From the NCBI GenBank assembly GCA_030674185.1, contig JAPXFY010000026.1:37299709-37363708 (forward strand): 64,000 nucleotides of DNA. The letters run 5' to 3'. This stretch comes from Monoplex corrugatus. Lineage: Eukaryota; Mollusca; Gastropoda; Littorinimorpha; Ranellidae. The notes beneath the pieces were generated by a model. That model was not told where the DNA came from. It saw only the letters and a program-made list of their open reading frames with translations, and did not search any database. The position numbers were made by a program, and so were the translations under genes. This document shows, in pieces, positions 52,991 to 59,260 of this stretch (position 1 is its first letter; each line of letters opens with the position of its first letter).

Positions 52991-53274
52991 GCACTCTGAT
53001 CAGAATGTGACTTTGCATGTTGATGATGAAAATGTAATGGCAGTGAATGTAGCTTCACATAGGGTGAGTGACAATAATGTTACACAGGAGGAGGGACATC
53101 AGACCTTAGTTTCACAGGCATCTACTGCTGGATTGAGCGTAGAGACATGCAGTGTAAACGGGTATGATGCTACTCTTCTGAGAGATACAAGCTGTACTAC
53201 AGCAGGGCTCAAGAAGTCTCTGGTGCGACCAGAGCAATACACAGGTGAAACACAGACATGCCGTTTTAGTTTGG

Positions 53275-53445
53275 GTTTTTTTTTTCGGGGGCAGAATTGA
53301 AAGATTTCCTGTAGCAAACATTGAAGTCTCAACCACCTATTTTGCAGGAACACTTGTGGCCTGTGTCATTGAAGAACCAGTCACTGATTTAATACTAGGT
53401 AATTTGCCTGGGATAGCAACTGTGCACGGGGTCAGGGAGGAACAT
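53275..53445 (+). pseudogene. Ty3 aspartic protease remnant
   Basis: RIERFPVANIEVSTTYFAGT followed by LVACVIEEPVTDLILGNLPG fits the C-terminal half of the retropepsin in this lineage. The catalytic DSG motif is not visible upstream, where a T8/G run (53277-53290) coincides with a frame change. Confidence 0.65.
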
Positions 53446-53504
53446 TTGTTCCATGCAATGTATCTACTAGGCAACAGGCTAGACAGCAGTCAGGTGCCAA
53501 ACCT

Positions 53505-53925
53505 TTGCCAACCCCTAACATTCCCTCCATTGATGTATCCTCCTCAGAACTCATACACTTACAACAAACAGATGAATCTCTGGCAGCTCTGTATAAAGAT
53601 GCACTTTCCCATGTACCACTCAACTGTGACAGGCCATGCTTTGTCAAAGACGAGGGAATACTCTACCGTATTTTCCCAAAGAATGGGTCAATCACAAAAC
53701 AAATCGTTTTTCCTTCGTCTCTGAGATGTACGGTCTTGCAGACAGCACATGACGCTATGTTTGCAGGTCACTGTGGAACCACGAGAACTCTACTTCTTTC
53801 TTTTGGCCAGGCATTTCGAAGTCAGTTGCGGAATACTGCCGTTCTTGTGACATTTGCCAAAAAACAATCCCCAATCTCAAAAGGTCGCATTCCCGCAGTT
53901 CCATTGTGTCATATGCCAGTCATTT
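53505..53925 (+). pseudogene. Ty3 integrase-type H2C2 zinc-domain region
   Basis: HLQQTDESLAALYKDAL, DEGILYRIF and HDAMFAGHCGTTRT (about 53747) are followed, in another frame, by FFWPGISKSVAEYCRSCDIC and QKT, the second half of the HHCC zinc domain. The element is interrupted at about 53926 by LINE copy C. The part from 53791 is duplicated at 57226. Confidence 0.8.
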
Positions 53926-54888
53926 CAATTCATATTGCTTATAGCCCAGCCGACCACTACAGCCATATCAGGGCTAACACCACGTCAAAAGAAAAGAACA
54001 ACCCGTCAAGATAAAAAAAACAACAACAGTTAAAAACCATGCTCACCGTCAACCTTGCAAATCTAAAATGCCATTAAAGAAAAACACGTAAAATTACATC
54101 GAGTGAAATCTATTGATCTCTTGTAAAAACTGGAAAATTGCATCAGGAGGGACGTCTCGGAACAGCTCCTTTAAGAAATCTGCCGTGTAGTGCTTTTGTC
54201 TTACATCGTACAAATCCCAGCAATTGAGGAGGAGGTGTTGGATGCTCAACAGCTCATCACACGGTATACACCATGGTGCTTCTTCATTTTTCAAAAGGTA
54301 CGAGTGAGTATAGGATGTGTGACTCGTGTGTAACCGACATAACACTGTCTCTTTCTTACAGTTTCCTGCAGCAGATGGGAGAATTTCTGTCAGGTTAGGG
54401 CGGATTTGTAAAAGTTTGTTATCTGTCTGTTTATTCCAATTCTCCTACCACAGATTTCTGACGTAACTGTGTACTTTCGATTTGACATCTGTGTAAGGGA
54501 TCAAGAACTTAGACATCTTTGTCACTGTAGCCTTCTTGGCCAGGTAGTCAGCCTTTTCATTGCCTCCAATACCAACATGGCCAGGAATCCAGGCAAAAAC
54601 AATCTTGTAACCTTCATTTGCAGGATTAGAATACAGTTCAAAGAACTTCACACAAGTTCAGGGTGACTAATGTTTTGGCAAGCGATTGCCTGCAAAGCAG
54701 AAAGGGAGTCAGAAAAAATTAGAAACTCTCGTGTCTGGATTGGGACACCATTTTAGTGCCAAAACCACAGCAGTCAGTTCAGCAGTGTAAACAGAACTTT
54801 CAGATGGAATACGTTTTGAAAATGCTCCATTGGGAATCTCGGAGCAGAAAGCAGCGGCAGCAACATCTTCATCACACTTGGACCCATC
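53791..54888. repeat. Direct repeat, left copy (1.1 kb) flanking the Rep insert
   Basis: 1098 bp that recur at 57226-58325. By eye the copies differ at only about four places (one-base insertion near 57427, T/A at about 54029, C/T at about 54682, one-base insertion near 58165), i.e. ~99.6% identity. The repeat contains the end of the Ty3 integrase fragment and the 3' part of a Jockey-type LINE, so it is host transposon DNA and not an LTR. Confidence 0.95.
53926..54888 (-). mobile_element. Jockey-type LINE copy C (interrupted)
   Basis: 3' tail with AATTC motif at 53926-53936, conserved tail motif at 53941-53985, CIPCDELLSIQHL region at 54240-54280, then the RNase H part up to 54888, where it is cut by the Rep insert. 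In the right-hand repeat the same LINE continues to 58683. Confidence 0.9.
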
Positions 54889-54960
54889 TCGTGGGCCGAT
54901 CTTAAGCAGGGGAGATAACTTAACATACGAGTCTGATGCGATTTTAGAAAGGAAAAGGAG

Positions 54961-55055
54961 GATTATGACGTCATAATCTTTTAATCCCCTGCGTCATAGA
55001 GATAGATACGTCATTGTTATCTTTATCACATCCGTCATCACAGATAATACGTCAC
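54961..55055. promoter_or_regulatory. Palindromic CRE and CGTCA cluster upstream of Rep
   Basis: A perfect 18-bp palindrome GATTATGACGTCATAATC at 54961-54978 contains the CREB/ATF site TGACGTCA. It is followed by four more CGTCA half-sites at about 54993, 55008, 55031 and 55047. Either a promoter of the Rep gene or Rep-binding iterons would explain the regular recurrence. Confidence 0.5.
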
Positions 55056-55086
55056 ACCTACGTGGTCCAATCAGAGACCGCCAGCT

Positions 55087-55135
55087 AGAGCCACATATTG
55101 CATTGTGGGTAATACTGCTTCGCTTAAGAGCCACA
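55087..55135 (-). other. Candidate rolling-circle origin region
   Basis: The minus strand carries CAGTATTAC at 55117-55109, fitting the NANTATTAC nonamer cut by circovirus-type Rep. It is bracketed by two direct copies of AGAGCCACAT (55087-55096 and 55126-55135), which could be Rep-binding iterons. A clear stem pairing around the nonamer is not visible, so the origin may be decayed or the match may be chance. Confidence 0.35.
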
Positions 55136-55188
55136 TGCCCCATCAGTGCTCTTCACTTTGGCGGTCCCTTTTGACGACAGAACTAGAA

Positions 55189-56388
55189 ATGGCTACAACA
55201 GCAACTAACCAGGTCGACCACAAATGTGTGAACTGGTGTTTCACATGGAACAATTATACCGATGAGGATTTAGAAAAAGTACAGCTCTTCGCACAATCTA
55301 CCGCCTGTAAGTACATGATTTACGGTAGGGAACATGTGAATGCACTCGACTGTACAAGACATTTGCAAGGATATATGCAGTTGAATGGAAGGAAGAGGCT
55401 TTCTTATTTAAAAAAAAATTTATCCAATACTGCTCATTTCGAAATAGCGAGAGGAAAACCGGAGGAAAATATTAAGTATTGTTCGAAAGAAGACTTTAAA
55501 CCTTTCGAATTCGGTGATCCATCAAACACAGTGAACGCCCCAAGAACCGACATTTCAAAACTTTTGGAGAGAATGCAGGAAGAAAATGTCAAAGAAAAAA
55601 CTCTGATCGACGAGTTCGGCATAGATTACCTGTCACGGAAAAAGCTGTTGAGGGACGCCATTGCAGACATGCGTAATGACGAGACCAGGGATACAATGAT
55701 CGCGCAAATGTCGTCCATGGAACTCTTTCCTTGGCAAGAATACGTTTTACGCAAACTAGACCATCAGTGTCAACGCAAGATTTTGTTCGTGGTGGACGAG
55801 GAGGGGAACACTGGAAAAACCCACCTTGCGAAATACATGGTAGCAGCAAAAAATGCGTTTTATACCAACAGTACGTCCTACCATGACGTTTTATACGCCT
55901 ACCAGCAGCAGACTATGGTGATATTTGATCTCGCTAGAGACCTCACCGACAAATTGAATTACGGTCTCATTGAAACGTTGAAAAACGGGTTGGCCTTTTC
56001 GAAAAAGTACGAGTCAAGAATGAGAACCTTTCGACCCGCGAAAGTGATGGTGCTGATGAACTCGCCACCCGATGAAACCAAACTGTCAAAAGACCGATAT
56101 GACATTATCTACATTGATATTTTGAAAAACCAACTCGCAATAGAGAAGACAACAGGAAGAACTGTTCTGACACCCTCACGAACGGCAAACAGTCCAGGGT
56201 CAGATCCATTCAGGTCTCCAATTCTTTCTCCGGTTACACCTCTCGCTTTCCAACCAATCCAGAGTCCACAACCATCGTGTAGTTACACGACGACGACTAC
56301 TACTACTACTACAGATCTTCCAACAGACGTTGTCGAGGATCAAATCCCTCTAGATGTGGTGCAACTCATCCTCGACCAATCATTCTAG
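55189..56388 (+). CDS. rep: CRESS-DNA-type replication initiator protein (Rep), intact
   Basis: 399 codons from ATG 55189 (context GAAATGG); the open frame extends upstream without an ATG. The HUH endonuclease domain has motif I CFTWNNYT (residues 17-24), motif II HLQGYMQ (58-64) and motif III YCSKED (97-102) with the nicking Tyr97. The superfamily 3 helicase domain has Walker A EEGNTGKT (204-211), Walker B MVIFD (243-247) and motif C VMVLMN (286-291). It nicks and rejoins origin DNA and unwinds it for rolling-circle replication. The ~80-residue C-terminal extension is Pro/Ser-rich with a nine-Thr run. All key residues are present and there is no stop, unlike every retroelement gene nearby. 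Confidence 0.93.
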   Translation: MATTATNQVDHKCVNWCFTWNNYTDEDLEKVQLFAQSTACKYMIYGREHVNALDCTRHLQGYMQLNGRKRLSYLKKNLSNTAHFEIARGKPEENIKYCSKEDFKPFEFGDPSNTVNAPRTDISKLLERMQEENVKEKTLIDEFGIDYLSRKKLLRDAIADMRNDETRDTMIAQMSSMELFPWQEYVLRKLDHQCQRKILFVVDEEGNTGKTHLAKYMVAAKNAFYTNSTSYHDVLYAYQQQTMVIFDLARDLTDKLNYGLIETLKNGLAFSKKYESRMRTFRPAKVMVLMNSPPDETKLSKDRYDIIYIDILKNQLAIEKTTGRTVLTPSRTANSPGSDPFRSPILSPVTPLAFQPIQSPQPSCSYTTTTTTTTTDLPTDVVEDQIPLDVVQLILDQSF

Positions 56389-56638
56389 ACTGACACCAAA
56401 ACCATGTTCTGCTCGTTTCGTTATACAAGTTTATTCAAAATGTTTGTTAGTTAATTACAAATTGTTAGTTCTACATAAATTCAAATGTTTCACTTGTTCT
56501 ATCGTTCCAGGTCTCTCTTCAAAAGGGACCGCTAGGGGTACATTCCTTTGGGTCTGTCTGTTATTCATACACAGCAGTCCTATTGGATACCTCTTAGCGG
56601 TTATCATAGACCTTCACGTTCCGACGGTGGATTCACAC
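56389..56638. other. Region between Rep and the opposite-strand gene
   Basis: No gene is recognised. On the minus strand a third frame continues with KFKGVLETLGVNPPSERE over about 56590-56665, so it may hold the decayed end of the opposite-strand gene. Confidence 0.4.
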
Positions 56639-57201
56639 CTAACGTCTCCAAAACACCTTTGAACTTCGTGGCCTCTGCTGCTGGATGGCAGCTGCACCTA
56701 CACCAGGTAGAAGAACGTCTGCTGTCTTCTCCACTATAGCCTTGACAGCTAACCTGCTAGATCTTTCAAAAACTTTCGGGATCCACCATCTTCTTCTGTA
56801 GCTGCTCTCTTTCCTACTTGATCTCCGGTAGGATACCATCCTGCACCAGAAGCTGCATAACGGTAAGGATATTTACTATCCTCTCCAGCTCTCTCAAAAG
56901 CTATATCTCCAGGGTGATCCTCACCACTGTCTTTCGCAAGGAGCTTAATACCTGCGTATTCGTCCACACCACCGATGAAGATCTTTGGATCTTGGATAAT
57001 GTCATTAAAATGTGATTTGTTAACCACAAAATGTTTCCACCACCAGTTTCTGTGTTGCCACCATGACTCGGTAACCAATCTACCGTGAACGCATATACTC
57101 GATTTCTCTAAAAAACCTAACGGAGAGGCACGAAATTGACTGTGTAAAGGAGCGAAATACACAGCATTGTGCCACGGACTGTCGTCAGTCTTGGTTACCA
57201 T
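56639..57201 (-). pseudogene. Unrecognised opposite-strand gene of the Rep insert, broken
   Basis: Starts at the ATG at 57201-57199 in a good context (CACCATGG), only 25 bp inside the insert edge, and reads 150 codons to 56749. Visible features: a Trp-rich segment (ESWWQHRNWWWKHF), FNDIIQDPKIFIGGVDEYAG and YRYAASGAGWYPTGDQ. A second frame (56639-56839) continues with VKAIVEKTADVLLPGVGAAA, so a frameshift near 56800 is likely. I do not recognise the family. Its position and orientation match those of a capsid gene in circovirus-like genomes, but the sequence itself does not prove that. The Rep gene beside it is unbroken. Confidence 0.45.
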
Positions 57202-57225
57202 GGTGCTTCTCTCATGGTCTTTTCA

Positions 57226-58325
57226 TACTTCTTTCTTTTGGCCAGGCATTTCGAAGTCAGTTGCGGAATACTGCCGTTCTTGTGACATTTGCCAAAAAAC
57301 AATCCCCAATCTCAAAAGGTCGCATTCCCGCAGTTCCATTGTGTCATATGCCAGTCATTTCAATTCATATTGCTTATAGCCCAGCCGACCACTACAGCCA
57401 TATCAGGGCTAACACCACGTCAAAAGGAAAAGAACAACCCGTCAAGATAAAAAAAACAACAACAGATAAAAACCATGCTCACCGTCAACCTTGCAAATCT
57501 AAAATGCCATTAAAGAAAAACACGTAAAATTACATCGAGTGAAATCTATTGATCTCTTGTAAAAACTGGAAAATTGCATCAGGAGGGACGTCTCGGAACA
57601 GCTCCTTTAAGAAATCTGCCGTGTAGTGCTTTTGTCTTACATCGTACAAATCCCAGCAATTGAGGAGGAGGTGTTGGATGCTCAACAGCTCATCACACGG
57701 TATACACCATGGTGCTTCTTCATTTTTCAAAAGGTACGAGTGAGTATAGGATGTGTGACTCGTGTGTAACCGACATAACACTGTCTCTTTCTTACAGTTT
57801 CCTGCAGCAGATGGGAGAATTTCTGTCAGGTTAGGGCGGATTTGTAAAAGTTTGTTATCTGTCTGTTTATTCCAATTCTCCTACCACAGATTTCTGACGT
57901 AACTGTGTACTTTCGATTTGACATCTGTGTAAGGGATCAAGAACTTAGACATCTTTGTCACTGTAGCCTTCTTGGCCAGGTAGTCAGCCTTTTCATTGCC
58001 TCCAATACCAACATGGCCAGGAATCCAGGCAAAAACAATCTTGTAACCTTCATTTGCAGGATTAGAATACAGTTCAAAGAACTTCACACAAGTTCAGGGT
58101 GACTAATGTTTTGGCAAGTGATTGCCTGCAAAGCAGAAAGGGAGTCAGAAAAAATTAGAAACTCTTCGTGTCTGGATTGGGACACCATTTTAGTGCCAAA
58201 ACCACAGCAGTCAGTTCAGCAGTGTAAACAGAACTTTCAGATGGAATACGTTTTGAAAATGCTCCATTGGGAATCTCGGAGCAGAAAGCAGCGGCAGCAA
58301 CATCTTCATCACACTTGGACCCATC
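57226..58325. repeat. Direct repeat, right copy (1.1 kb) flanking the Rep insert
   Basis: Begins TACTTCTTTCTTTTGGCCAG like 53791 and is identical to the left copy apart from about four single-base differences. At the right edge (GGACCCATC at 58325) the LINE sequence continues uninterrupted into 58326, whereas the left copy switches to the Rep insert after the same CCCATC. Confidence 0.95.
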
Positions 58326-58683
58326 AGTGAAGATTCTGCAGGATGACGGAGATTTTTCACACAATTCCGCATAAAACGATTTGTACGCCAGTGCACTGGT
58401 ATTGTCTTTATGGAAGGAAACAAGATCAAAACAAACCTTCGGTGTTTTCAACGTCCATGGTGGACTATCTGGAAACTTGGAGAAGTCGTTAACAACTGCT
58501 AAATTTATATCTGCCTTTTTCAAAGGGGGATGGACACGCAGCCCCAAAGGTGGAGTCACTTTTGGATGTTTTTCAAAGTCACTTTGAAATCTGGGGTTGA
58601 AGACAGTCATAAGCTGGGTTTTCCGGTTCAGAGAACAGTTTCAAACTGAAATTTAAACTTAGTTTCAGTCTACGGTTGCTCAG
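57361..58683 (-). mobile_element. Jockey-type LINE copy D (continuous)
   Basis: The same LINE as copy C but continuing past the repeat edge. The RNase H domain reads RIFTDGSKCDED, SSVYTAELTAVVLALK (58155-58420) and VFAWIPGHVGIGGNEKADYL (57960-58020). The 5' end is truncated at about 58683, before a CT/CA microsatellite. A frameshift lies near 58150. Confidence 0.9.
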
Positions 58684-58705
58684 ATTTTATTATAGTATCA
58701 CCGTC

Positions 58706-58817
<112 letters not shown>

Positions 58818-58949
58818 GCAAAGGATTCAATTTTAGATTTATGTTATTCAAAGTCCAGCTGGCTGCTCAAAGCCTTAACAGTGCTGAAACTATCTCAAGC
58901 ACTACACTTCTATGTAATCGTCGAAAAATGAAAACATGGAGAAAAAAAT

Positions 58950-59260
58950 GTTAAGTTCACGTATTATTGCAGTCAAGCAAATAAAGAATATGCCCCTGGC
59001 ATTGACCTTCTGCCCAATTTGTCATCAACGGGACTAAAAAAACTTGAATACAAATGCTTTATACTTAAGTACACAAAACACACAGAAATTGTAAATAATC
59101 CCTAAAATTGTCACTGAGCAGTTCACATGTTCTTCACACTACAAATCTGCTTAATGCATAGGTACAATTGGTTATTAATCCAAACTGACAAAAAGTATCT
59201 TAGGCTTTGATAGAAAAAAATAACTGAATAAATTAGCAAAGCAGAAAATACATCAGTGCA
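58950..59260 (-). repeat. Dispersed repeat R, decayed copy
   Basis: Shares ATGCCCCTGGC(A/G)TTGACC, CCAATTTGTC and the ATTGGTTATTAATCC block with the middle of repeat R (R4 at 62850-63060). Both ends are missing. Confidence 0.5.

What the first reader, a model, noticed from the sequence alone, without database searches (positions are those of the whole stretch)
53791..58325. CRESS-type Rep insert flanked by 1.1-kb, ~99.6% identical host direct repeats: trace of a recombined ~3.4-kb circle
Seen: 53791-54888 and 57226-58325 are the same host DNA (a Ty3 integrase end plus a Jockey-type LINE), differing at about four positions. Between them lies 2337 bp of unrelated DNA with an intact Rep gene. 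The left repeat switches to the insert after CCCATC, whereas the right repeat runs on into the normal LINE. A transposition target duplication of 1.1 kb is not known. Inference: a circle of about 3.4 kb, made of the Rep replicon plus 1.1 kb of captured host sequence, recombined at the homologous locus (Campbell-like), or Rep-driven replication copied host DNA. Tandem duplication or an assembly error are alternatives.
Basis: partly seen in the sequence, partly recalled or inferred. Interest (0 to 1): 0.92.

Follow-up and report, generated by a model that had tools for sequence, protein, structure and literature searches.

The report
Viral fragment between duplicated host DNA
A piece of a small circular DNA virus, with an open replication gene and its origin motif, sits in an animal-sized genome between two copies of the same 1.1-kb stretch of host DNA, most likely a scar of virus integration during DNA repair that copied the target site, as seen for some tumour viruses.

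Summary
53791-54888 and 57226-58325 are the same host segment (1098 and 1100 bp, four differences) and flank 2337 bp of unrelated DNA. Both outer edges lie inside host repeats that are colinear elsewhere (Ty3 left, LINE right), so the ancestral locus had one copy. The insert is not a whole replicon. It is about two thirds of a CRESS-type viral genome: an open Rep gene (399 aa), a conserved nonanucleotide origin motif on the opposite strand, and the 3' part of an antisense capsid-like gene. Relatives in this genome form head-to-tail arrays with 3.0-3.6-kb units; the window copy lacks about 1.27 kb of such a unit.

Best explanation: a partial viral genome was joined at a chromosome break and repair synthesis copied 1.1 kb of target, the 'Z-pattern' integration described for Merkel cell polyomavirus. 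None of 7 assessable other viral loci shows such repeats. No reads were available, so misassembly is not excluded. The virus lineage, with a capsid-like protein for which four kinds of search found no homolog, may be the more novel part.

The parts
53791..54888 (.). Left copy of the duplicated host segment H: 129 bp of a Ty3 element, then the 3' part of a Jockey-type LINE in antisense orientation
54889..57225 (+). Viral insert V, 2337 bp, about two thirds of a CRESS-type viral unit
55109..55117 (-). Nonanucleotide CAGTATTAC, putative rolling-circle origin motif, on the strand opposite Rep; it or TAGTATTAC is present in 11 of 11 extracted sequences (window plus 10 picked by similarity)
   Evidence: a hairpin is not supported by DNA folding of the window copy
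55189..56388 (+). Open Rep gene, 399 aa: HUH endonuclease and helicase motifs (motif names recalled) plus a C-terminal extension of about 80 aa
56619..57210 (-). Remnant of a capsid-like gene (matches residues 309-506 of a 513-aa open ORF at locus L024, in three pieces); cut off by the insert's edge and out of frame in places
57226..58325 (.). Right copy of H, running on into the rest of the LINE
54886..54891 (.). Junction J1 (host to virus), 3-bp microhomology against one viral relative (L022)
   Evidence: chance of 3 bp or more 0.056
57223..57228 (.). Junction J2 (virus to host), no microhomology; a 13-bp deletion relative to viral relatives lies 15 bp inside the insert

Best explanation
Integration of a truncated CRESS-virus genome with duplication of the target ('Z-pattern'). 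A linear, partial viral DNA was joined by one end to a broken host chromosome (J1). Its other end primed copying of host DNA about 1.1 kb away, up to the break (microhomology-mediated break-induced replication); alternatively the break had 1.1-kb staggered strands that were filled in on both sides of the captured fragment. Either way left-H-right becomes left-H-V-H-right in one event. Shown: the layout, one H in the ancestral order, a truncated viral insert, near-identity of the copies. Inferred: the break, the polymerase path, the order of steps, and that the event was in the germline.
For: H edges fall inside host repeats that are colinear elsewhere: of 21 places matched by a 440-bp probe across the left edge, 11 (own locus plus 10) cover it whole, and 8 of 8 held LINE relatives run past the right edge. 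The Ty3-LINE composite was found only in these two copies (40 of 5256 candidates scored). The copies differ at 4 places in 1100, while the 8 LINE relatives differ from them by 5.2-6.1% of aligned bases. The insert lacks about 1.27 kb of a viral unit, as expected for a broken linear viral molecule. J1 has 3-bp microhomology and a small deletion sits near J2. The same architecture with about half a viral genome is reported for MCPyV (PMC7470373, passages).
Against: MCPyV Z-pattern duplications were over 17 kb in most cases, with one 6-bp case (passages); 1.1 kb is short for break-induced replication and long for a staggered break (my judgement). J2 has no microhomology and J1's 3 bp is borderline (P 0.056) and rests on one relative that is not the true parent. 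No other assessable locus repeats the pattern (0 of 7). No reads and no empty allele were seen.
Confidence: 0.6

Rival explanations
1. Campbell-like integration: a hybrid virus-host circle of about 3.44 kb (V plus H) formed first, replicated through the viral origin and Rep, and recombined homologously into the locus H came from.
For: V+H = 3435-3437 bp, close to the 3618-bp Cap-to-Cap spacing in the C13 array. V holds an origin motif and open Rep. Hybrid circles with 478-1058 nt of host DNA are known in a geminivirus (PMC6293997, passages and section 6 part 1), whose authors write that in theory minicircles should integrate too.
Against: Needs two rare events. Other unit spacings here are 3153 bp (Rep-to-Rep in the same array) and 3014 bp (C7 array), so the size match is weak. 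No second copy of H with its join, nor of V at near identity, was found. The geminivirus circles hold 332-763 nt of viral DNA, too little for a whole Rep gene (my inference from the table).
Confidence: 0.17
2. Assembly artefact: two haplotypes, or a real extrachromosomal V-H circle, were threaded into one path.
For: The copies differ by only 0.36%, within what allelic variation could give (inference). No reads were available. A circle sharing H with the chromosome could assemble in this way.
Against: No Ns in the window. Both junctions are seamless in the sequence, each copy carries private variants, and no alternate haplotig of H with the Ty3-LINE join was among the scored matches.
Confidence: 0.12
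3. Rep-driven integration as in adeno-associated virus: Rep nicked the host at the left edge of H, host DNA was copied by strand displacement, and the strand switched to viral template.
For: AAV Rep is a related HUH/SF3 enzyme (recalled). [quoted passage not shown] that paper is not held). The host reads T/AC at the left edge, as in the nonanucleotide cut (cut site recalled; sequence).
Against: No NANTATTAC in 53001-59000 other than the viral one. A three-base match is chance-level. V does not start or end at its own origin motif.
Confidence: 0.07
4. Ordinary transposition of a Rep-coding mobile element.
For: The sequence is multicopy: 45 matched places.
Against: Copies differ in extent and are 67-94% identical to V; the end shared at insert position 2322 is where V's own 13-bp deletion lies, with the gene continuing in 16 of 17 relatives' rows, not an element end. 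The duplication is 1.1 kb. The inverted repeat around Rep is not kept in the L022 and L024 units.
Confidence: 0.02

Closest known systems
Z-pattern integration of Merkel cell polyomavirus (PMC7470373; 12 of 44 passages seen)
   Same: Partial genome of a small circular DNA virus flanked by direct copies of adjacent host DNA; proposed MMEJ plus MMBIR
   Different: Tumour cell lines and one tumour, mostly >17 kb duplicated (one case 6 bp); here 1.1 kb, in a genome assembly, CRESS virus
AAV Rep-dependent integration with target-locus duplication (Henckaerts 2009; title seen in a reference list)
   Same: Rep-coding ssDNA virus; host target partly duplicated
   Different: No nonanucleotide at the host edges here; AAV is linear with terminal hairpins (recalled)
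Geminivirus virus-host hybrid minicircles (PMC6293997; passages and section 6 part 1)
   Same: Viral origin region joined to about 0.5-1.1 kb of host DNA
   Different: Free circles with a short viral part, plant host; here chromosomal, with Rep
Endogenous circoviral/CRESS elements (PMC6372831, PMC3198968; search listing with start of abstract only)
   Same: Chromosomal Rep sequences
   Different: Here a capsid-like gene without detected homolog, head-to-tail arrays, and a long host duplication at one locus

Membership tests
CRESS DNA virus-derived endogenous element | Rep with HUH and SF3-like helicase motifs | tested here: met
   Pfam PF02407 E 1.8e-19 and PF00910 E 6.3e-5; motif residues among the invariant columns of an 11-row alignment (motif names recalled); 8 PDB sequences with Rep-type names, best E 1.3e-11
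CRESS DNA virus-derived endogenous element | Nonanucleotide origin motif | tested here: met
   CAGTATTAC or TAGTATTAC in 11 of 11 sequences; 10 of them chosen by similarity to the window over at least 41 nt, shorter matches dropped
CRESS DNA virus-derived endogenous element | Origin stem-loop | tested here: inconclusive
   DNA fold of the window copy no better than shuffles, z 1.66; an RNA-parameter fold without control gave -15.7 kcal/mol
CRESS DNA virus-derived endogenous element | Capsid gene | tested here: inconclusive
   Antisense 513-aa Arg-rich ORF at L024, no homolog by Pfam, protein, IMG/VR or PDB search
CRESS DNA virus-derived endogenous element | Circular genome | tested here: inconclusive
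   Head-to-tail units in two arrays, as circles would give; no free circle could be looked for
Z-pattern viral integration | Virus flanked by direct copies of adjacent host DNA, one ancestral copy | tested here: met
Z-pattern viral integration | Microhomology at junctions | tested here: inconclusive
   3 bp at J1 (P 0.056), 0 at J2
Z-pattern viral integration | Single reads spanning the locus | not testable with these tools
   no reads held
Virus-host hybrid minicircle | Closed circle joining viral origin and host DNA | not testable with these tools
   no reads or circle-enriched data
Transposon | Constant ends and short target duplication | tested here: not met
   1.1-kb duplication; relatives cover different parts of V; no short flanking direct repeats in 7 of 7 assessable loci at E 1e-3, a test that would miss duplications of a few bases

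The most novel reading that the evidence does not exclude
The locus is the chromosomal form of a virus-host hybrid replicon. A 3.44-kb circle with viral origin, Rep and 1.1 kb of host DNA in place of the missing capsid-gene part replicated in an animal and recombined home, and the flanking repeats can still release it. It would be the animal counterpart of geminivirus hybrid minicircles and a route for carrying host DNA between genomes.
Probability: 0.15. Interest if true: 0.85.

Novelty: new variant of a known kind. Interest (0 to 1): 0.5.

Why it matters
How CRESS viruses enter animal genomes is mostly inferred from decayed fragments (my knowledge). A young insertion (copies 0.36% apart) with both edges and both target copies preserved records the repair path. 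If spanning reads confirm it, it extends target-duplicating integration from tumours to a genome assembly and gives a locus whose repeats could release an origin-plus-Rep circle. Three literature searches on endogenous CRESS elements (20 of 38, 15 of 37 and 4 of 4 papers listed, titles and abstract starts only) showed none that describes a long target duplication; that is not proof that none is in print.

Tried and rejected
Transposon with terminal inverted repeats: the 28-nt inverted repeat 55161-55188/56505-56532 is not kept in the L022 and L024 units. Two independent LINE insertions: rejected, both copies share the Ty3-LINE join, which no other scored place has. Donor elsewhere in the genome: none seen; the nearest relatives are about 97% (capsid remnant, one L022 unit, 18 of 620 bases differ) and about 87% (parts of Rep), so V came from a virus or a sequence not in the assembly. 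Selection keeping Rep open after integration: not needed; from 4 changes in 2198 bp, half of them indels, about 1.1 indels are expected in 1200 bp, P(0) 0.34. Capsid remnant decaying before integration (as a passenger on a circle): three indels against 0.56 expected gives P 0.02, but one of them is the 13-bp deletion next to J2 that may belong to the event; with two, P 0.11. Suggestive only, and it leans towards the circle model.

Host naming by a family search (PF14830) and a count of all Rep genes (PF02407) did not complete. Phage records gave no match; IMG/VR gave none for Rep or capsid as single queries and five distant Rep loci (28-48% identity) with the alignment A1, not followed up. NCBIfam gave nothing.

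Full report
Check of the observation. Repeats at 53791-54888 and 57226-58325 (1098 and 1100 bp) were found directly and aligned: two substitutions and two single-base length differences. Between them lie 2337 bp. The window has no Ns. It lies at C26:37299709-37363708 of a 3.018-Gb assembly of 7621 contigs.

What H is. A 440-bp probe across the left edge matched 21 places, of which 11 cover it whole (own locus plus 10), so the left edge is no natural boundary; one further row is the right copy, starting exactly at the edge; the other nine are partial. The search with H gave 41 rows: the two copies, 38 long LINE matches at 91-93% and one short one (40 of 5256 candidates scored). I held 8 of the 38 as loci; 8 of 8 run past the right edge and 6 of 8 go on to about 58683. 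Only the two H copies contain the Ty3-LINE join among the scored places. So the ancestral order was left-H-right, and one H copy is new. Against the 8 LINE relatives, the left copy is the derived one at three of the four differing sites and the right copy at one; at one of the left copy's three sites (near 57426) the right copy differs from the relatives too. Both copies have therefore mutated on their own.

What V is. Rep (55189-56388, 399 aa) matches Viral_Rep and RNA_helicase in Pfam, 8 Rep-named PDB sequences and 77 proteins in the large protein set; the top-ranked is 42% identical over 74% of the query, and a named one is Delphin virus 1 at 37%. Catalytic motif residues are among the invariant columns of an 11-row alignment (motif names recalled). 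The nonanucleotide CAGTATTAC lies at 55109-55117 on the minus strand; it or TAGTATTAC occurs in 11 of 11 extracted sequences, 10 of which were picked for similarity to the window. A stem-loop is not supported for the window copy. Downstream and antisense lies the remnant of a capsid-like gene: it matches residues 309-506 of a 513-aa arginine-rich open ORF at L024, in three pieces. The remnant has two single-base deletions not seen in the nine relatives aligned, and a 13-bp deletion 15 bp from the right junction.

V is truncated. In relatives the capsid-like gene continues where V stops: of 17 boundary rows, 16 continue in a common way and one (L032) breaks off into a simple repeat. In the C13 array units run head to tail: the Cap-to-Cap spacing is 3618 bp, the Rep-to-Rep spacing 3153 bp because one intergenic region is shorter, and the C7 array has 3014-bp units. 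Measured on L022, V lacks 1257 bp plus the 13-bp deletion. V+H is 3435-3437 bp.

Relatives and age. The insert matched 45 places, its own included. Rep dN/dS against relatives was 0.03-0.10 in 4 of 7 pairs (dS 0.78-2.69), and dS was saturated in the other 3: the gene evolved as a working protein before insertion. The capsid remnant is nearest to one L022 unit (18 of 620 bases differ) while Rep is nearest to other places at about 87%, so the lineage seems to recombine. With 4 changes in 2198 bp since duplication, an undamaged Rep is unsurprising (P 0.34).

Junctions. J1 shows 3 bp shared by host and one viral relative (chance of 3 or more 0.056), J2 none. The relative is not the true parent, so this is approximate.

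Is it systematic? I compared left and right flanks at 15 other viral loci; the C13 array was not tested. Eight were not assessable: satellite-like repeats on both sides (L024, L032, L035), a tandem array (L029), many Ns (L025, L034, L038), no left flank (L036). In the other seven (L026, L027, L028, L030, L031, L033, L037) there was no direct repeat at E 1e-3; L027 and L031 had one short inverted match each. About 2 to 6 kb of flank was held on each side, so a farther duplication would be missed. On this sample the duplication is a one-off.

Mechanism. A partial viral genome between direct copies of adjacent host DNA is the Z-pattern described for MCPyV, where one case has a 17-kb duplication around about half a viral genome and the authors propose end joining followed by microhomology-mediated break-induced replication (PMC7470373, 12 of 44 passages; review PMC12363244, passages). 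Tandem duplications can also arise from breaks with protruding ends (PMC5730883, passages), which with a captured fragment would give the same product (inference). Both are one-step. The circle model adds a capture step and a homologous step; geminivirus hybrid minicircles make the first step credible (PMC6293997, passages and section 6 part 1). Sequence alone cannot separate them. I put 0.6 on the one-step repair, 0.17 on the circle, 0.12 on assembly.

Twist. Whatever its origin, H-V-H could by recombination between the repeats release a 3.4-kb circle holding origin motif and open Rep. That is inference; no circle was looked for in reads.

Novelty. A new variant of a known kind: target-duplicating viral integration, here by a CRESS virus in a genome assembly. 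The capsid-like protein had no homolog in Pfam, the protein set (single and 5-row profile), IMG/VR (pattern-based scans) or the PDB (the PDB profile search gave one row at E 0.78, a ribosomal protein), so the virus lineage deserves its own study.

On re-reading the calls I corrected the boundary-row count (16 of 17), the call that shows the 13-bp deletion, the description of the PDB names, the identity ranges and the wording on derived sites.

Noticed in passing
L021-L023 (C13:82012001-82040500): Head-to-tail array of related viral units mixing two Rep lineages; the second is about 54-70% identical to the window Rep at protein level
   Followed up: partly
L029 (C7:87253000-87262900): Tandem units of 3014 bp, 98-100% identical over most reported stretches (one third copy 69%), with an inverted partial unit next to them
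   Followed up: partly
L024:5784-7322, L026:2068-3636, L033:3360-4919, L034:4139-5809: Open capsid-like ORFs over the whole gene length; the L026, L033 and L034 proteins are 75, 76 and 63% identical to that of L024 (L026 and L033 resemble each other). Suggests several entries of a diverse virus lineage.
   Followed up: partly
L022:2935-3270, L022:6463-6888, L024:6977-7324: Open frame overlapping the arginine-rich start of the capsid-like gene, similar in all three; may be a real overlapping gene or a by-product of codon use
   Followed up: no
window 56142-56388: C-terminal extension of Rep of about 80 aa (Ser/Pro/Thr-rich), shared with L022; the nine outside Reps aligned end earlier or have unlike tails
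   Followed up: no
window 58712-58819: CT/CA microsatellite just downstream of the right LINE copy
   Followed up: no
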